DNA from: a virus
IMG/VR virus record: IMGVR_UViG_3300021185_002167
Coordinates: 62,001-126,000 of that record
Reading direction: 5' to 3' (one strand)
Length of the DNA: 64,000 nucleotides
A program made the translations under genes and the position numbers. This document shows, in pieces, positions 11,132-19,007 of this stretch. Numbering within the stretch: position 1 is the stretch's first letter; each line of letters starts with the position of its first letter. The notes below the pieces were generated by a model. That model was not told where the DNA came from and searched no databases. It worked only from the letters and a program-made list of their open reading frames with translations.

Positions 11132-11572
11132 ATGAATATTGAACAATTAAAAGAAACACTAAAAATTGACGAAGGAGTAGTTTATGAAATTTATAATGAC
11201 CATCTTGGTTATCCAACATTTGGAATTGGTCACCTCGTTCTTGAACGGGACGGAGAACATGGGTTACCGGTGGGTACTCCAGTCTCAGAGGATAGAGTTA
11301 GCGAATGCTTCGAACAAGATGTACAAATAGTAATAGAAGATTGTAAAAAATTACACGACGGATGGGATGGATATCCTCAAGAAGTGAAACAGATCATTGC
11401 GAACATGATGTTCAATATGGGACTTACGCGCTTAAGTAAATTTAATAAACACAATGCAGCGCTGCAGTGTGGTGATTGGAAGGAGGCTGCTATAGAAGGC
11501 AGAGATTCAAGATGGTACAAGCAAGTAACAAACAGAGCCGAGAGGCTAATGAAAAGACTCGAAGAGGTATAG
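11132..11572 (+). CDS. T4-type lysozyme (GH24 endolysin)
   Basis: This 146-residue muramidase resembles T4 gpe. The catalytic triad fits the family spacing exactly: Glu14 (KIDEG), Asp23 and Thr29 (YNDHLGYPTFGIGHL). It cuts the peptidoglycan glycan backbone. T4 gpe is 164 residues, so this is a compact version. There is no signal peptide, so release needs a holin or other membrane pore. The start follows the site CAGGAG (about 11121-11126). Because gp5 in this genome has no lysozyme domain, this is the only muramidase found in the window. Confidence 0.94.
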   Translation: MNIEQLKETLKIDEGVVYEIYNDHLGYPTFGIGHLVLERDGEHGLPVGTPVSEDRVSECFEQDVQIVIEDCKKLHDGWDGYPQEVKQIIANMMFNMGLTRLSKFNKHNAALQCGDWKEAAIEGRDSRWYKQVTNRAERLMKRLEEV

Positions 11573-12045: not shown

Positions 12046-12053
12046 TATAAATA
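12046..12053 (+). promoter_or_regulatory. Late promoter box TATAAATA
   Basis: An exact late box lies between the terminator and ATG 12087. It is the first promoter of the run of overlapping genes that leads into csgF, csgG and the cyclase, and so probably drives that cassette late in infection. Confidence 0.75.
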
Positions 12054-12086: not shown

Positions 12087-12338
12087 ATGGCAACAGTAAA
12101 ACTTAAAGGATCAGAAACTAATTTAGCAACTGATACTAACGTTAATTTCGCTACATTAGTAAGAGTAGTAAATAATAAAACATCAATTCAGCTTATAACT
12201 ATAAAAGATGCTGGTGGTAGTACTAAAGGTACATTTACAATGACAGCTGGTTCAGTAGAATTAGTTGAAAAAACCGCAACTGATACTCTTTTAGGAGCTG
12301 CAACATCATTAGCAGTTAAAGTAGCATTCACTAAGTAA
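12087..12338 (+). CDS. Small putative virion protein
   Basis: This 83-residue, Thr/Ala/Val-rich beta-type protein (MATVKLKGSETNLATDTNVN, then VRVVNNKTS, and a TATDTLLGA segment) resembles small structural proteins that are abundant in marine T4-like phages. It has no Cys and no signal. It is the first gene after the 12046 late box, and its stop overlaps the next ATG (TAATG). Confidence 0.65.
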   Translation: MATVKLKGSETNLATDTNVNFATLVRVVNNKTSIQLITIKDAGGSTKGTFTMTAGSVELVEKTATDTLLGAATSLAVKVAFTK

Positions 12339-12634
12339 TGGGTGAAATATTTACGCTTATATCCGATCTAGGATTACCTATTGCGGGTGCTCTAGTAATG
12401 GGATATTTTATATTTGTTATAATAAAGCAAATACTTGAAGGCGTTGTTGATGACATAAACACTCTTACAATGTTTTGTTCATCACTTGAGAATAGAGCAA
12501 GAACAATGAGTAATGAAATGATTAAAATAGATTTACTTGTAAGTAGTGCATTGGAATTAAGACCCGATGTCGAAAGAATAGCTAGGGCAGAAAATTTTAT
12601 TGAAGATGGAAAGCTCGACGTAAGAAGAGATTAG
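12338..12634 (+). CDS. Small membrane protein, copy 1 of a paralogous pair
   Basis: This 98-residue protein has one hydrophobic segment (residues about 10-33, GLPIAGALVMGYFIFVIIKQ) followed by a helical, coiled-coil-like cytoplasmic or periplasmic part (VVDDINTLTMFCSSLENRAR). The layout matches the next gene (G-hydrophobic-GYF...I.Q, then Asp and a helical tail), so the two look like duplicates. A holin-like or ion-channel-like role is possible but unsupported by a named family. Confidence 0.7.
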   Translation: MGEIFTLISDLGLPIAGALVMGYFIFVIIKQILEGVVDDINTLTMFCSSLENRARTMSNEMIKIDLLVSSALELRPDVERIARAENFIEDGKLDVRRD

Positions 12635-12635
12635 T

Positions 12636-12905
12636 ATGGAACTGGAAATAGCTGATATAGTAGGTAAGTATGGATTTCCAACTGTCATGGTTGTAGGTTT
12701 AGGATATTTTGTATATTTTGTTTATAACTTTATACAAGAACATTTAGACCCTGCAACAGAAAAAATGCATTTTCAATTAATAAAAGTGATTGACCAAATG
12801 AGAATGTTAGACCAAGACCTTATAAGATTACAGCAAAAAGTAGATACAGTATTGGAATATAAAGAAAATGAAAAGAAAAAACAAGATAGAAAAGATGAAG
12901 TATAA
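12636..12905 (+). CDS. Small membrane protein, copy 2 of a paralogous pair
   Basis: This 89-residue relative of the preceding protein has a membrane segment at about 13-34 (YGFPTVMVVGLGYFVYFVYN) and a helical tail with LIKVIDQMRMLDQDLIRLQ that ends in Lys/Glu/Asp. Both members start with an acidic amphipathic stretch and share a G-(F/L)-P motif at the membrane entry. Located directly before csgF, they may be part of the same export or anchoring system. That is inference from position. Confidence 0.7.
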   Translation: MELEIADIVGKYGFPTVMVVGLGYFVYFVYNFIQEHLDPATEKMHFQLIKVIDQMRMLDQDLIRLQQKVDTVLEYKENEKKKQDRKDEV

Positions 12906-13407
12906 AGCAGAAGCATTTACCTTAATGGGAATATTTATTTTGTCGATATCAAGTCTTGGTGTAAGTGCTGCAGAGATAGTACATAAATTTAAAAATCCTT
13001 CCTTTAGTGGAATAGGTACTGCTTCTCATTATCTTACTGTAGAGAATCAAGAATTCTCTCGTAAGAAATCTATAGAAGAAGCATTAGCTGCAGCAGAAAA
13101 AGCAGCGCAAAGAGAAGCTGAGAATACTACTCTTGCTAAGTTTATAAGAAACTTGGAAAGTAGAATATATGCTCAAATGTCAAAACAACTTGTTGAGAGT
13201 ATGTTTCAAAATGATGGCGCAGTAAGATTTGGTTCCTTTACATTAGAAGGATCAGTCGTTACTTATGAAGTGATAACCAATGAAGATGGTTCAGAATATA
13301 TTAAAATGTCTATAATCGATGCAAATGGAACTGAAACTGTTATTCAAATTCCTATAGGAACAGGTTACTTCGGGAGCGATTATGGTACGTCAGCTGACGG
13401 CGGTTAG
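12868..13407 (+). CDS. csgF: Curli assembly factor CsgF
   Basis: The protein has up to 179 residues. A signal peptide (KAEAFTLMGIFILSISSLG, cleavage after SAA or VSA) is followed by the CsgF signature HKFKNPSFSGIG, matching FRNPNFGG of E. coli CsgF, then a helical Ala/Glu-rich neck and a long segment (LAKFIRNLESRIYAQMSKQL) that aligns with FTQAIQSQILGGLL. The C-terminus carries strands ending IQIPIG. In E. coli, CsgF plugs into the CsgG pore and anchors the curli nucleator at the surface. ATG 12895 gives a tidier signal peptide and is an alternative start; neither start has a clear ribosome site. It overlaps csgG by 26 nt. Confidence 0.88.
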   Translation: MKRKNKIEKMKYKAEAFTLMGIFILSISSLGVSAAEIVHKFKNPSFSGIGTASHYLTVENQEFSRKKSIEEALAAAEKAAQREAENTTLAKFIRNLESRIYAQMSKQLVESMFQNDGAVRFGSFTLEGSVVTYEVITNEDGSEYIKMSIIDANGTETVIQIPIGTGYFGSDYGTSADGG

Positions 13408-14299
13408 TCTTTCAATAGCCCTATTATCTAGTTGCGCAGCTGTACCTAGATACTCAGAAAATCCTCAGGATTGTAATAAAGATACATGGGGCGAACAGTA
13501 TGACCATGACCTATGGAACTATGCAAAAGCTTCAGGAAGAACATTTGAAAGAGCAATACCGTTTATATGTGTTGACGCACCTGAAGTTGTTAAGTTACCA
13601 TCATTTATAAAACTACTACAACTTCCACCAGCTGAATCTAAACCAGTAGTTGCAGTTTACCAATTTGCAGATAAAACTGGTCAAAGAAAAGCAAGAGAAG
13701 GTATAGCCGATTTTTCTACAGCAGTTACTCAAGGTAGTACTGAAATGTTAATTGATGCTCTTAAAAGCGCAGGTAATGGTAGTTGGTTTAGAGTTGTAGA
13801 GAGACAAGGATTAGATAACCTTGTAAGAGAAAGACAAATTATTAGAAGTGCTCGTCAAGATATTGCAAAAGCAAAAGGCGAAGAAGAAGCACAAGGTATA
13901 CAACCACTATTATTTGCTGGAATGATAATAGAAGGTGGTATAATAGGTTATGATACAAACATCCTATCCGGTGGCCGTGGAGCTAGAACGTTAGGTATAG
14001 GAATAAGCAGACAATATCGTAAAGATGTTGTAACAGTTTCAATTAGAGCAGTATCTGTTCTAACTGGAGAAGTTTTATTAAACGTCCAAAGTAAGAAAAC
14101 TATCTTATCTTATGGAAGTGGCGGTGATATTTTTCGATTTATCGAAGAAGGTACACAATTGATAGAGTATGAAGACGGAGTGGGTAAAAATGAGTCAGTG
14201 ACATACGCAGTACGAACAGCCATCGAGGCCGGAGTACTGGAATTAATCAACCAAGGTCATGATAGAAGATTTTGGAAAATAGAAGGAAAAGAAACATGA
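13382..14299 (+). CDS. csgG: Curli secretion channel CsgG (outer-membrane lipoprotein)
   Basis: This 305-residue close relative of E. coli CsgG carries a lipobox ending LSSC (Cys18). Shared landmarks with E. coli include KTGQ-type turn after VVAVYQFAD, FSTAVTQGSTEML, VVERQGLDNLVRERQIIR, MIIEGGIIGYDTN, SGGRGARTLGIG, KTILSYGS, FRFIE, and a C-terminal AIEAGVLELINQGHDR. CsgG forms a nonameric pore that exports curlin subunits across the outer membrane. About 40 extra residues lie between the lipobox and the core. In the constriction loop Phe111 is kept, but the neighbouring Asn is Asp110 and the Tyr position is charged. Start ATG 13382 overlaps csgF; the stop overlaps the next gene as ATGA. Confidence 0.95.
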   Translation: MVRQLTAVSLSIALLSSCAAVPRYSENPQDCNKDTWGEQYDHDLWNYAKASGRTFERAIPFICVDAPEVVKLPSFIKLLQLPPAESKPVVAVYQFADKTGQRKAREGIADFSTAVTQGSTEMLIDALKSAGNGSWFRVVERQGLDNLVRERQIIRSARQDIAKAKGEEEAQGIQPLLFAGMIIEGGIIGYDTNILSGGRGARTLGIGISRQYRKDVVTVSIRAVSVLTGEVLLNVQSKKTILSYGSGGDIFRFIEEGTQLIEYEDGVGKNESVTYAVRTAIEAGVLELINQGHDRRFWKIEGKET

Positions 14300-15021
14300 T
14301 AAAATATATTTTAGGCCTAAGTTTATTTTTTAGTTTAAACTCTTTCGCAGCAGCATCTGATGATAATGAAATTAATATTGCTCAAGTAGGTGATACACTT
14401 ACTTTGTATATTGACCAAGTAGGATACGGTAACAAAATAGGACTTGATAACTTTGACAGTAGTTCAAGTGCTATGCCGATTACTGGGTCATCATTAACTT
14501 TCAATATCGACCAAATAGGTAATGAAAACTTACTCTTTGGTAAACTCACAGCAGATTCTTCATCTTACACTTTAGAGTGGAATGGTGATAATAATGTTTG
14601 GGATTGGATGATTGGAGAAACTGGTTCAGCTGATAGTTCAAACTATTTAGTTGATATAACTGGTGACTCTAATACTATGGACCTAGACCAAGGTTCATTA
14701 TTTAGTGCGGAAAGATTAAATTTTGATTTAACAGTTTTAGGTAGTTCGAACGTATTTGATGTTGACATAGAAACTGATGATGTTATATGGAACTTTGATG
14801 TTACAGGTAGCACAAATAATATTAATACTTTACAAAAAGATGGATACTATAATGAGATTAATTTTACTCTTGATGGTTCCGGAGCTGATGTAGACATTAA
14901 CCAGATATCTGGTACGTGTCCTACAGGAGTTTCAAGTTGTAAGGGTATTATAACACTTGATGTGGATAGTGAAAATGCAACAATTCAAATCAATCAAAAA
15001 GATTCAGCTAACGATAGTTAA
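14296..15021 (+). CDS. Curlin-repeat amyloid-type subunit, copy 1
   Basis: This 241-residue secreted protein has a signal peptide (IKYILGLSLFFSLNSFAAA) and degenerate curlin repeats of the type N-x-(I/V)-x-Q-x-G-x2-N: INIAQVGDTLTL, YIDQVGYGNKI, FNIDQIGNENL, MDLDQGS, VDINQISG, IQINQK. Asn, Asp, Gln and Gly are strongly enriched, as in CsgA/CsgB. Near the C-terminus there is a pair C-x6-C (CPTGVSSC) before the final strand. It is likely the substrate of CsgG. ATG 14296 is used because it gives an intact signal peptide and ATGA coupling to csgG. Repeats are less regular than in enterobacterial CsgA. Confidence 0.83.
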   Translation: MIKYILGLSLFFSLNSFAAASDDNEINIAQVGDTLTLYIDQVGYGNKIGLDNFDSSSSAMPITGSSLTFNIDQIGNENLLFGKLTADSSSYTLEWNGDNNVWDWMIGETGSADSSNYLVDITGDSNTMDLDQGSLFSAERLNFDLTVLGSSNVFDVDIETDDVIWNFDVTGSTNNINTLQKDGYYNEINFTLDGSGADVDINQISGTCPTGVSSCKGIITLDVDSENATIQINQKDSANDS

Positions 15022-16132
15022 TCTTATACTTGTAGGGTTTGTTTCGGCAGACCCTATAGGTTCTATTGTAGAGCAGTCCGGTTCTACGCAAATTAAAAGA
15101 CAACAAGAACAAATAAAAATAACTGATGAGGTACAACCTGATATTCAGTTAAATGATGTAGCTGAAACGGCGAATGGTAAACTAAAAATAAAGTTTTTAG
15201 ATGACGCTCAATTAGATATCAAAGAACATAGTGAAGTGTTAATTGATGAAATATATTATGACCCAGACCCATCACTCTCTAAAATGTCAATGAAGTTTAC
15301 TATGGGAACAGCAAGATTTGCTTCAGGTTCTCTTGGATTAGTAAACAAAGCGAATATAGATATACAAACACCAACAGCCACGATAGGTATTCGTGGTACA
15401 GATTTTACAACAACAATTGATGAACTTGGAAGGTCATTAATTATGTTACTTCCTGATGTAAATGGCGATCCATCAGGAGAGATTACAGTTACAAACGAAG
15501 CTGGAGTTATAACTCTTAATCAAGCTTATCAAGCAACAATGGTATCTTCGTTAAATACAATGCCAACTAAACCTGTTACTATCGGTGGTATTACACCTTC
15601 AATGATTGATAATATGTTTATTGTTAATCCACCAAAAGAAGTAAAAGAAGCTATAGAAGAACAGGTAAAGGATGATTCAAATAAAGACCAAGGATTACTT
15701 GATATAGATTACTTAGAATATAACGAATTAGAAAAAGACTTTGATGATTATGCTAACGATCCTGATTATGACGCTCGAAATGGTAGGATTGATGTTGATT
15801 TTTTAGCTGGTGAATTTTTACCAGACCTTTTAGATGTTGTAGAAGAATTAATTAAAACAACTGTTGTACTTGGAGATAAACAAGGAGCAACTGGTGGAAC
15901 AGCAGGATTTAAACTTGAAGGTGCTCAACTTGGACTGAATAAGGATAGTCAATATAATATATTCTTAGAAGATTCAGGTATTGTATTCTTTAGAGATATT
16001 AATGGTGTCATAAATCTTATATTCGAAGCAGGAGCTTCAGTTAATCTTAATACTGTTGTTGATGGTTATGAAGGAACAATCACAATGAATGGTGGAGACG
16101 ATATAAATATTTACATAAGGCAGGTAAACTAA
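14975..16132 (+). CDS. Secreted FecR-domain protein
   Basis: With ATG 14975 the protein has 385 residues: signal peptide (KKIQLTIVNLILVGFVSA), a FecR domain over roughly residues 30-170 (GSIVEQSGSTQIKR, VAETANGKLKIKFLD, HSEVLIDEIYYD, TPTATIGIRGTDFTTTI), an acidic linker and a beta-rich C-terminal part ending NGGDDINIYIRQVN. Stand-alone secreted FecR proteins often neighbour CHASE2 cyclases in bacteria and are thought to be periplasmic sensory or surface components. Here it sits between two curlin-repeat genes, and the last strand (INIYIRQ) itself looks like a curlin strand. It overlaps the preceding gene by 47 nt. The precise role is unknown. Confidence 0.85.
   Translation: MQQFKSIKKIQLTIVNLILVGFVSADPIGSIVEQSGSTQIKRQQEQIKITDEVQPDIQLNDVAETANGKLKIKFLDDAQLDIKEHSEVLIDEIYYDPDPSLSKMSMKFTMGTARFASGSLGLVNKANIDIQTPTATIGIRGTDFTTTIDELGRSLIMLLPDVNGDPSGEITVTNEAGVITLNQAYQATMVSSLNTMPTKPVTIGGITPSMIDNMFIVNPPKEVKEAIEEQVKDDSNKDQGLLDIDYLEYNELEKDFDDYANDPDYDARNGRIDVDFLAGEFLPDLLDVVEELIKTTVVLGDKQGATGGTAGFKLEGAQLGLNKDSQYNIFLEDSGIVFFRDINGVINLIFEAGASVNLNTVVDGYEGTITMNGGDDINIYIRQVN
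16102..16109 (+). promoter_or_regulatory. Possible internal late promoter box TATAAATA
   Basis: An exact late box lies in the last codons of the FecR gene, 23 nt before the 23-residue ORF and 91 nt before the second curlin gene. It could boost expression of that subunit. Chance occurrence is possible in AT-rich coding sequence. Confidence 0.4.
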
Positions 16133-16203
16133 TGAAAGAAAAAAGAAAAACTCTTGTATCAATTTGGACAAATGGTAAAAAAACAGTGAGAGTATACTCA
16201 TGA
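16132..16203 (+). CDS. Possible 23-residue basic peptide
   Basis: This short frame starts at the FecR stop (TAATG overlap) and ends by ATGA overlap with the next gene. The peptide is basic (MKEKRKTLVSIWTNGKKTVR). The double overlap suggests translation, perhaps only to couple the two flanking genes. Confidence 0.4.
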   Translation: MKEKRKTLVSIWTNGKKTVRVYS

Positions 16204-16847
16204 AAATGATAGCATATATATGGCTTATCTCATTTTGTGCTCTTTCATTTGCAGGAGATAACCACGTACATATAGAACAAGTTGGTGGTGGAGATAATGT
16301 TGAGATTGATGTTACTCAAATAGGATATGATAATGAAATTAATTTTTCATTCGATCATCAAAATAATGTGTTTAACTTAAATCAAACTGGAAGTGGTAAC
16401 TATATTGGTTGGGTTTCCTATTGGGGTTCAGGTAAATCATGGGGTGGTGATGTTGATGGTACTAATAATAGCGAATCAGTTATGCAATTAAACGGTGCGA
16501 CTTATGGTAGACATATATGGGGAAATAGTAATGACGTTGATATATATCAGAATGGAACACATACTCATAACCTAGACTTACATGCTAATTCTGTAGACCA
16601 TGACCTATGGCAAGAAGGAAGTGGTAGTCATTATAATCATACTTATTTTTATGGCTCATCATCTTATTCAGATACAAATATAATGCAAAAAGGAACTGGT
16701 TCTCATAACTCTCAAATCACATTACAAGGTTCATATGCAACTACATTAAATATATTACAACAAGGATCGATTAATCAAGCTTATTCATTAACTCAAAATT
16801 GTCAAACAGTAGGCGGTTGTACAGTATCAATTACTCAAGGAAATTAG
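16200..16847 (+). CDS. Curlin-repeat amyloid-type subunit, copy 2
   Basis: This 215-residue secreted protein has a signal peptide (MIAYIWLISFCALSFAG) and curlin-type repeats: VHIEQVGGGDNV, DVTQIGYDNEI, FNLNQTGSGNYI, VDIYQNGTHTHN, NIMQKGTGSHNS, NILQQGSINQAY, SLTQN. The spacing of Gln-x-Gly-x2-Asn units is about 20-25 residues, as in CsgA. It is His-, Tyr- and Trp-rich in the middle. The C-terminus has C-x5-C (CQTVGGC) directly before a final strand TVSITQGN, paralleling the first curlin-like protein. It is the best candidate major subunit of the cassette. Confidence 0.86.
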   Translation: MKMIAYIWLISFCALSFAGDNHVHIEQVGGGDNVEIDVTQIGYDNEINFSFDHQNNVFNLNQTGSGNYIGWVSYWGSGKSWGGDVDGTNNSESVMQLNGATYGRHIWGNSNDVDIYQNGTHTHNLDLHANSVDHDLWQEGSGSHYNHTYFYGSSSYSDTNIMQKGTGSHNSQITLQGSYATTLNILQQGSINQAYSLTQNCQTVGGCTVSITQGN

Positions 16848-16870: not shown

Positions 16871-18709
16871 ATGAAATATTTAACTTCAATATGGACAACT
16901 ATTATACTTGGTATTACACTTTTAGGTGTAAGAATTCTAGACCCTCAGTTATTAGAACAGTTTAGGCTCAGCATATTCGATCAGTATATACAATCTCTTC
17001 CAGTAGAACATTCGAACGATATAGTGTTGATTAATATATCCGAGTCTTCACTCGAAGCTTATGGTCAATACCCTTGGCCACGTCAGAATCACGCAGCAGT
17101 GATTTCTGATTTAAGGAACTCGAATGCTGGCATGATAGGGTTTACTATAATGTTTCCAGAAGAAGATCGTTTCGGAGGTGACACTATCTTTGCGTCTTGG
17201 ATAAAAGATAATGGTATTATTCTTGCACAAGATGCGGATCAAAATGGGAGAAGTTCTAAAGCACCTTATGTAGGGTATGCAACATTTGGTTATTCAGGAG
17301 ATCCATTAGATCTTACATATCGATATAAAGGACTGATTACAAATATAGAAGAATTAGAGAAACATGCATGGGGAGTAGGTCTATTAAATGGAGCTCCTGA
17401 AGTAGATAATCTTACAAGAAGAATACCATTAATGTCTCAAGTTAACGGAGATTTATATCCATCATTTGCATTAGAAACTGTAAGAGCAATGCAAGATAAG
17501 AAATCGTATACAATAAAGTTAAATGAAGCTGGAATTGAAAGTATAGTATTAAGACCTTTTATAATACCAACAGATGAGAGAGGTAGTATATGGTTAAAAT
17601 GGAATACACACTTTGAATCAATTGATTATGATGGACAACCATTACCAGATTTAAAAGGAAAGACAGCAATTATAGGAGTTACTGCAAAAGGTATTGTTCC
17701 TCAAGTATCTACTCCAGCTGGGTTATTATATCCACATCAAATACAAGCAAATGCATTACAGACAATAATATCTGATAATCCTATATCACGGCCTCAATGG
17801 ACTTATCTTGCTGAACTTGCAATGATTCTGATTGGTTCTCTTCTGATTGTATTAACTGTATACTATCTTCCGATATGGGTCGGTGCTGTATCCTTCGTCG
17901 GCTCTGCAATCGCTGTAAGCTTTGCTTCTTATTACGCCTGGTACGAATTTTCTATACTCCTCGATTTATCAGCTACTCTAATAATATATATACTTTTACT
18001 CACCTCATCGAGTTTCAATAATTTTTATAAACAATTCGTATTAAGACAACAAGTAAAGAAACAATTTGGTACATATGTATCTCCTGACTTAGTTAAACAA
18101 TTACAAAAAGACCCATCACTCTTACGATTAGGTGGAGAAAGAAAAGAGATGACCTTTATGTTTATGGATATATGTGGATTCACTCCTATATCAGAATATT
18201 ATAAAAACAAAGATGACCCAGAAGGACTTGTAATTCTTATAAATAATTATTTAGATACTATGACAAAAATCGTTTTAAAGAACGGTGGAACTATAGATAA
18301 ATTTATGGGTGATTGTATCATGGCATTTTGGAATGCTCCACTTGATTGTGAAGACCATGCCTTTAAAGCTGTACAAACATCGATCGAAATATGCGAGGCA
18401 GCTGATGAACTTATACAACAACTTGAAGAGCAAGGTTTACCTAGGATTGATATTGGCATTGGTATCAACACCGGGACTTGTATTGTCGGAAATATGGGTT
18501 CAGAATCTAGATTTGACTATTCCGTCATTGGAGATGCCGTTAACCTCGGGGCTAGACTCGAAGGCCAAACAAGAAATTATGATGGGGTTCGAGTGTTGTT
18601 GGGACCGGAAACTTATAGAAGCTGTAAAGACCGAAGAGTATTTACACAAATCGATAGAATCCGTGTTAAAGGAAAATCCGAGAAAGTTACAATATACTCA
18701 CCAATCTAG
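16871..18709 (+). CDS. CHASE2-domain class III adenylate cyclase
   Basis: This 612-residue membrane enzyme comprises an N-terminal transmembrane helix (about 6-22), a periplasmic CHASE2 sensor (about 30-305, with NISESSLEAYGQYPWPR and GKTAIIGVTAKGI), three further transmembrane helices (about 311-380) and a cytoplasmic class III cyclase domain (about 424-612). Catalytic residues are complete: metal Asp433 (FMDICGFT) and Asp481 (KFMGDCIMAF), adenine-selecting Lys477 and Asp549 (FDYSVIGDAVN), and transition-state Asn558 and Arg562 (VNLGARLE). It should make cAMP from ATP in response to a periplasmic cue. It follows the second curlin-like gene by 23 nt. A phage-encoded cyclase is unusual; coupling to the FecR and curli genes is suggested by the layout. 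Confidence 0.94.
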   Translation: MKYLTSIWTTIILGITLLGVRILDPQLLEQFRLSIFDQYIQSLPVEHSNDIVLINISESSLEAYGQYPWPRQNHAAVISDLRNSNAGMIGFTIMFPEEDRFGGDTIFASWIKDNGIILAQDADQNGRSSKAPYVGYATFGYSGDPLDLTYRYKGLITNIEELEKHAWGVGLLNGAPEVDNLTRRIPLMSQVNGDLYPSFALETVRAMQDKKSYTIKLNEAGIESIVLRPFIIPTDERGSIWLKWNTHFESIDYDGQPLPDLKGKTAIIGVTAKGIVPQVSTPAGLLYPHQIQANALQTIISDNPISRPQWTYLAELAMILIGSLLIVLTVYYLPIWVGAVSFVGSAIAVSFASYYAWYEFSILLDLSATLIIYILLLTSSSFNNFYKQFVLRQQVKKQFGTYVSPDLVKQLQKDPSLLRLGGERKEMTFMFMDICGFTPISEYYKNKDDPEGLVILINNYLDTMTKIVLKNGGTIDKFMGDCIMAFWNAPLDCEDHAFKAVQTSIEICEAADELIQQLEEQGLPRIDIGIGINTGTCIVGNMGSESRFDYSVIGDAVNLGARLEGQTRNYDGVRVLLGPETYRSCKDRRVFTQIDRIRVKGKSEKVTIYSPI

Positions 18710-18725
18710 AGATAGAGAGATTCTA

Positions 18726-19007
18726 TTGACATGGTATTTACTTAATGCATTAGATGTCCATTCAACGTTAAAAGGATTAAAATATTCATGTATAACTGAA
18801 GCCAATCCAATACTGCCAACTGTACCACATAGGGATAATCTCTTAATTCATAAATCAATTGTATTAAGTAGTTTCTTTAATTTAGATCTATGGAGTGCTG
18901 AAGAAATATGGGTAATGAATCTTGTTATGGCTTCTGTTGTTATCGATAATTATAAAATTGTAAATAGATCTAAAAAAAATCCAACAACGTGTCCTAAACG
19001 CGGTTAA
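18726..19007 (+). CDS. Small multi-pass membrane protein (DUF5658-like)
   Basis: This is a 93-residue reading frame after the cyclase. It lacks an ATG; TTG 18726 is the likeliest start, after a GAGAG run. Features are WYLLNALDVHSTLKGL, the motif EANPILPT, a second hydrophobic segment (HKSIVLSSFFNLDLW), a third (WVMNLVMASVVIDNY) and a basic Cys-containing tail. The LN-x2-D-x2-ST...EANP pattern matches, from memory, small DUF5658-type membrane proteins. It closes the cassette before the next early promoter. Function unknown. Confidence 0.65.
   Translation: MTWYLLNALDVHSTLKGLKYSCITEANPILPTVPHRDNLLIHKSIVLSSFFNLDLWSAEEIWVMNLVMASVVIDNYKIVNRSKKNPTTCPKRG

What the first reader, a model, noticed from the sequence alone, without database searches (positions are those of the whole stretch)
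16871..18709. Intact membrane adenylate cyclase encoded by a phage
All class III catalytic positions are present (two metal Asp, adenine-selecting Lys and Asp, transition-state Asn and Arg) behind a full CHASE2 sensor with four membrane helices. A phage making cAMP on its own membrane receptor would rewire host signalling during infection, an unusual auxiliary function.
Basis: partly seen in the sequence, partly recalled or inferred. Interest (0 to 1): 0.82.

Follow-up and report, generated by a model that had tools for sequence, protein, structure and literature searches.

The report
Phage curli-operon CHASE2 adenylate cyclase
A marine T4-like phage carries a complete membrane enzyme that should make the messenger cAMP, sitting at the end of a block of genes for secreting curli-type surface fibres; this kind of gene block is already described in ocean phages, and the enzyme is best read as its sensor.

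Summary
The ORF at 16871-18709 is real: 612 aa, four membrane helices, a CHASE2 domain and a class III cyclase domain with the catalytic residues kept, under strong purifying selection, in a T4-like phage record of 128 kb. That cassette, cyclase included, was published for pelagiphages in 2022 (PMC9599517) and is annotated in HTVC008M and Melnitz. So this is a diverged new member of a known kind. Added here: (1) two bacterial genomes carry the same contiguous operon and their cyclases group with the phage ones; (2) a T4-type late-promoter motif lies upstream of the phage cassette in 32 of 39 loci; (3) other viral contigs attach a related CHASE2 cyclase to a type-I-secretion-like cassette, with FecR on the giant surface protein in several. 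Best reading: FecR plus CHASE2-AC is a sensor unit tied to surface-fibre export, made late in infection. No cNMP-binding receptor was found in the 12 viral records searched; the host target of cAMP is unknown.

The parts
16871..18709 (+). CHASE2 class III adenylate cyclase, 612 aa: TM1 about 4-22, periplasmic CHASE2, TM2-4 about 312-378, cytoplasmic cyclase 425-607
16200..16847 (+). second curlin-like repeat protein (215 aa)
   Evidence: no Pfam hit of its own; same order slot as in viral homologues, found with phage-built curlin profiles
14957..16132 (+). FecR-domain protein, 391 aa
   Evidence: Pfam FecR 3.4e-07; phrog_37870
14272..15021 (+). curlin-repeat protein
   Evidence: Pfam Curlin_rpt 0.0066, below the curated cut-off
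13382..14299 (+). CsgG outer-membrane curli secretion pore
   Evidence: Pfam 2.4e-53
12868..13407 (+). CsgF curli pore accessory/nucleator
   Evidence: Pfam 4.4e-15
12636..12905 (+). small hydrophobic protein, phrog_18771; likely the slot called histidine kinase in PMC9599517, but no kinase domain detected
12338..12634 (+). small hydrophobic protein, phrog_18771 (paralogue of the previous)
12046..12053 (+). T4-type late-promoter element TATAAATA ahead of the cassette
   Evidence: present upstream in 32 of 39 viral loci, 0 of 39 on the reverse strand
16102..16109 (+). second TATAAATA, 90 bases upstream of curlin 2 and the cyclase

Best explanation
The protein is an active ATP-specific class III cyclase and the cytoplasmic output of a sensor unit belonging to a phage curli (type VIII) secretion cassette. 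Shown by sequence: the domains, catalytic residues, purifying selection, fixed gene order, and a late-promoter motif upstream. Inferred: late in infection the phage makes CsgG/CsgF pores and curlin-like fibres; the periplasmic FecR-domain protein reports the state of fibre or pore assembly to the CHASE2 domain; CHASE2 then changes cyclase dimer activity and hence cAMP. cAMP would act on a host receptor, because none was found in the phage records searched. In the T1SS-like relatives, several giant surface proteins carry the FecR domain themselves, which suggests that the monitored thing is the exported surface protein.
For: Domains and residues. Catalytic domain matches P. aeruginosa CyaB, 42% identity, TMt 0.87. 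dN/dS 0.05-0.13 in the cyclase domain. Order CsgF-CsgG-curlin-FecR-curlin-AC: every viral locus of the first scan that shows several of these genes fits it, truncated by contig ends. Two bacterial genomes hold the same operon and their cyclases group with the phage cyclases (97*). Ten of 65 upstream neighbours of bacterial CHASE2 cyclases are FecR and 14 are ABC transporters. FecR in T1SS-like surface proteins. Late-promoter motif. FecR next to a CHASE2 histidine kinase in a Burkholderia biofilm operon (PMC5192318), and a CHASE2 cyclase pathway that signals through an outer-membrane protein in S. meliloti (PMC13001267).
Against: No biochemical data. No cAMP receptor in the phage records searched and host receptors not examined. 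FecR-CHASE2 contact is inferred from gene neighbourhood only. Five other alphaproteobacterial csg loci sampled show no FecR or AC with these profiles, so curli does not need this unit. Ser551 instead of Thr or Asp is not proven to give ATP specificity. No clumping was seen in Melnitz-infected cultures (PMC9004378), though Melnitz has a changed active site.
Confidence: 0.55

Rival explanations
1. The cyclase is a general host-reprogramming gene: cAMP acts on a host CRP-type regulator to shift metabolism during infection, and its place in the curli cassette is incidental.
For: The phage has no receptor of its own, so a host target is needed; the enzyme is highly conserved.
Against: The cyclase stays in the curli cassette in viral loci and in two bacterial genomes; related cyclases sit beside another export cassette. 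The CHASE2 sensor is also constrained (dN/dS 0.09-0.22).
Confidence: 0.2
2. The cassette is a lysis-timing device (proposed for Melnitz CsgGF in PMC9004378), and the cyclase helps to set lysis time.
For: Late-promoter motif and a phage lysozyme gene nearby at 11132-11572; two small hydrophobic proteins between them.
Against: The cassette also encodes curlin-like proteins, not just a pore, and the same operon exists in bacterial genomes, where lysis is not its purpose.
Confidence: 0.12
3. The enzyme makes another cyclic nucleotide (cGMP, or cCMP/cUMP as in Pycsar) and serves in exclusion of rival phages.
For: PADLOC Pycsar cyclase models hit the catalytic domain, best 1.3e-23; Ser551 is not the textbook Asp.
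Against: Lys477 is invariant; in the related CHASE2 cyclase Cya2 the E488K variant has adenylate cyclase activity (PMC5995499). No cNMP-binding effector domain in the record.
Confidence: 0.08
4. A passenger gene inherited with the curli genes and no longer used.
For: Melnitz has lost the transition-state Asn (Ser instead), so change at the active site does occur in one lineage.
Against: Strong purifying selection and invariant active site in all the other viral homologues checked.
Confidence: 0.03

Closest known systems
Pelagiphage T8SS (curli) module with FecR and adenylate cyclase (PMC9599517; HTVC008M AGE60353.1)
   Same: Same genes in the same order; annotated adenylate/guanylyl cyclase; 44% identity over the full length
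   Different: A distant relative: a 24.9-kb stretch of the window has almost no megablast match to any phage record
Methylophilales phage Melnitz T8SS module (PMC9004378)
   Same: Same gene order with FecR and two curlins
   Different: 36% identity; Melnitz cyclase has Asp at the 551 position and Ser in place of Asn558
Alphaproteobacterial CsgF-CsgG-curlin-FecR-CHASE2 AC operon (L084, L196)
   Same: Same contiguous operon without CsgE; cyclases closest to the phage ones among the bacterial ones sampled
   Different: In bacterial contigs; 39-42% identity in the cyclase; L084 has Thr at the Ser551 position
Class III cyclases CyaB (3r5g) and Synechocystis CHASE2 cyclase Cya2 (2w01)
   Same: Same catalytic fold and residues; Cya2 is also CHASE2-coupled
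   Different: CyaB has Thr where this has Ser; Cya2 has Glu instead of Lys477 and is a guanylate cyclase

Membership tests
Class III nucleotidyl cyclase | Two metal-binding Asp, transition-state Asn and Arg in a cyclase homology domain | tested here: met
   Asp433, Asp481, Asn558, Arg562; Pfam 2.2e-19; TMt 0.87 to CyaB
Adenylate (not guanylate) specificity | Lys at the first base-selecting position | tested here: met
   Lys477 invariant in viral homologues
Adenylate (not guanylate) specificity | Asp or Thr at the second base-selecting position | tested here: not met
   Ser551; side chain similar to Thr, so ATP specificity is not excluded and enzyme assay decides
Class III nucleotidyl cyclase | Head-to-tail catalytic dimer with both active sites | not testable with these tools
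   Only single chains can be modelled; all needed residues are in one chain, so a homodimer could form two sites
CHASE2 receptor | CHASE2 domain between one N-terminal and three following membrane helices | tested here: met
Curli / type VIII secretion cassette | CsgG pore and CsgF | tested here: met
Curli / type VIII secretion cassette | Curlin-repeat fibre subunits | tested here: inconclusive
   Curlin_rpt below cut-off for the first, none for the second; profile and order match in viral set
Curli / type VIII secretion cassette | CsgE gate (present in E. coli; reported absent from alphaproteobacterial and phage modules) | tested here: not met
   No PF10627 in this record, HTVC008M, Melnitz, or the two bacterial genomes with the same operon
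Pycsar defence | Pyrimidine cyclase with an adjacent cNMP-gated effector | tested here: not met
   Cyclase models hit but no cNMP-binding domain anywhere in the record

The most novel reading that the evidence does not exclude
FecR plus CHASE2 adenylate cyclase is a portable sensor unit that marine phages attach to at least two unrelated surface-protein export systems (curli T8SS and a T1SS-like cassette with giant cadherin/RTX proteins), so that the infected cell reports the state of phage-built surface fibres through cAMP. The T1SS-like phage cassette was not found in the papers I could search.
Probability: 0.4. Interest if true: 0.72.

Novelty: new member of a known kind. Interest (0 to 1): 0.45.

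Why it matters
Phages of abundant marine bacteria carry genes to build surface fibres that their known hosts lack (PMC9599517, PMC9004378), and the reason is unknown. Tying the cyclase to a sensor unit for fibre export, late in infection and reused with a second export system, turns a loosely described auxiliary gene set into a testable signalling loop and points to a bacterial operon in which it could be studied.

Tried and rejected
A class-wide search for csg loci found few, and among the csg loci examined only L084 and L196 have the cyclase. Search for a phage-encoded cAMP receptor: none. Reading the two small upstream proteins as histidine kinases: no kinase domain, 89-98 aa; a holin-like identity was considered by eye but no Pfam model supports it. 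gp23 and the phrog_2 terminase were not found in the T1SS-type contigs tested, so their phage type is open. Host receptors in SAR11 could not be checked: no named SAR11 genome was in reach, and literature searches gave nothing useful.

Full report
The observation. The ORF at 16871-18709 (+, 612 aa) is intact. Pfam finds CHASE2 at 15-327 and the cyclase domain at 425-607. Four membrane peaks are seen. AlphaFold2 gives mean pLDDT 87.6 with the expected elements; confidence drops at 543-548, next to the active site. The catalytic part matches P. aeruginosa CyaB (42% identity, TMt 0.87) and the CHASE2-coupled Cya2.

Residues. Alignment to solved cyclases and to about 80 viral homologues gives metal Asp433 and Asp481, base-selecting Lys477, transition-state Asn558 and Arg562 (roles from general knowledge of class III cyclases). 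CyaB and the photoactivated cyclases have Thr there. Lys477 is the stronger guide: the guanylate cyclase Cya2 has Glu at this place and its E488K variant has adenylate cyclase activity (PMC5995499). Melnitz differs, with Asp at 551 and Ser at 558, and may be impaired. Against eleven relatives dN/dS is 0.05-0.13 in the cyclase domain and 0.09-0.22 in CHASE2, so both ends of the protein are constrained.

Setting. The window is bases 62001-126000 of a 128,059-base virus record with a T4-like Gp23 capsid gene and T4-like baseplate genes. The best gp6 relatives are Melnitz, Mosig and HTVC008M at 38-40%. The host is not shown; SAR11 or another streamlined marine bacterium is likely by kinship. Upstream of the cyclase lie CsgF, CsgG, a curlin-repeat protein, FecR and a second curlin-like protein. 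Every viral locus of the first scan that shows several of these genes fits that order. Melnitz has the same annotated order; HTVC008M has the same layout with two genes annotated hypothetical in the FecR and second-curlin slots. PMC9599517 already describes this module, the cyclase included, its presence in podo- and myoviruses and its alphaproteobacterial affinity. PMC7029224 and PMC9004378 describe the curli genes, with no mention of a cyclase in the text. The finding as stated is therefore a new member of a known kind.

What is added. Both run CsgF-CsgG-curlin-FecR-CHASE2 AC. In the tree their cyclases are sister to the phage cyclases (97*, phage group 93). In a wider tree all phage cyclases and these two form one group apart from the other bacterial cyclases sampled (100/100), but the bacterial pair falls among the phage branches. 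Direction and number of transfers are open. L084 is from a MAG, so its placement is as good as the bin; the contig itself looks bacterial.

Second, TATAAATA, the T4 late-promoter core (from general knowledge), occurs 20 times on the + strand of the window, 14 of them within 100 bases before an ORF start. That is the highest among all 56 rearrangements of the same letters (next 7). It lies upstream of the curli block in 32 of 39 viral loci and never there on the reverse strand. These loci are related, so this is conservation, not 39 independent events. The cassette is probably expressed late.

Third, the cyclase of L086 is filed under a bacterial MAG, but its contig carries phage-type genes (for domains, for the exonuclease). 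It led to 80 viral contigs with a related cyclase. Where upstream sequence is present, the genes before many of them are a giant surface protein, an outer-membrane efflux protein, a roughly 254-aa membrane protein resembling the membrane half of an ABC transporter (phrog_2392; no Pfam ATPase hit), and HlyD; a minority sit beside curli genes instead. The three phage surface proteins checked have cadherin or RTX-type repeats, and two of the three carry an N-terminal FecR domain by Pfam; a bacterial 2072-aa RTX protein near a CHASE2 cyclase (L125) does too. L199 carries both cassettes side by side. Of the T1SS-type cyclases long enough to check, all keep Asp433, Lys477, Asp481, Ser551, Asn558 and Arg562. 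I found no paper on it in the searchable library, which is not proof of novelty. The phage type of these contigs is unresolved.

Mechanism. The common elements are CHASE2 cyclase, FecR domain, a surface fibre or adhesin, and its export channel. I take FecR to be the periplasmic partner of CHASE2; a Burkholderia biofilm operon couples FecR to a CHASE2 histidine kinase (PMC5192318), and S. meliloti CHASE2 cyclases respond to a signal sensed through an outer-membrane protein (PMC13001267). The contact itself is inferred. cAMP must act on something in the host: neither this record nor 11 other viral records has a cNMP-binding domain; several of those records are fragments. Pycsar models hit the catalytic domain, but no cNMP-binding effector is found.

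Verdict. Real, intact, conserved, probably an active adenylate cyclase; already described as a kind; its role in fibre-export sensing is a testable hypothesis.

Noticed in passing
L086, L197-L276 (for example L203:480-9923, L241, L243): Type-I-secretion-like cassette in viral contigs: giant cadherin/RTX surface protein (several with an N-terminal FecR domain), TolC-like protein, short ABC membrane half, HlyD, then a CHASE2 adenylate cyclase. Not found in the papers searched.
   Followed up: partly
L199 1-10533: One viral contig holds both the T1SS-like cyclase cassette and a curli cassette in opposite orientation, with a second cyclase ORF beyond.
   Followed up: partly
window 12338-12634 and 12636-12905: Two 98- and 89-aa hydrophobic paralogues (phrog_18771) before CsgF, apparently the 'histidine kinase' slot of PMC9599517, but with no detectable kinase domain.
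   Followed up: partly
L003 7932-9980 (Melnitz): Melnitz cyclase has Ser in place of the transition-state Asn and Asp at the second base-selecting position; it may be impaired or altered in specificity.
   Followed up: no
window 18309-19007: ORF in another frame overlapping the cyclase end; DUF5658 match at residues 143-209, so the true gene probably starts near or after the cyclase stop.
   Followed up: no
L086 / genome G789 (MAG MED657): A MAG labelled Rickettsiales contains phage sequence, including the contig with the secretion-cyclase cassette and a contig with a Gp23 gene.
   Followed up: partly
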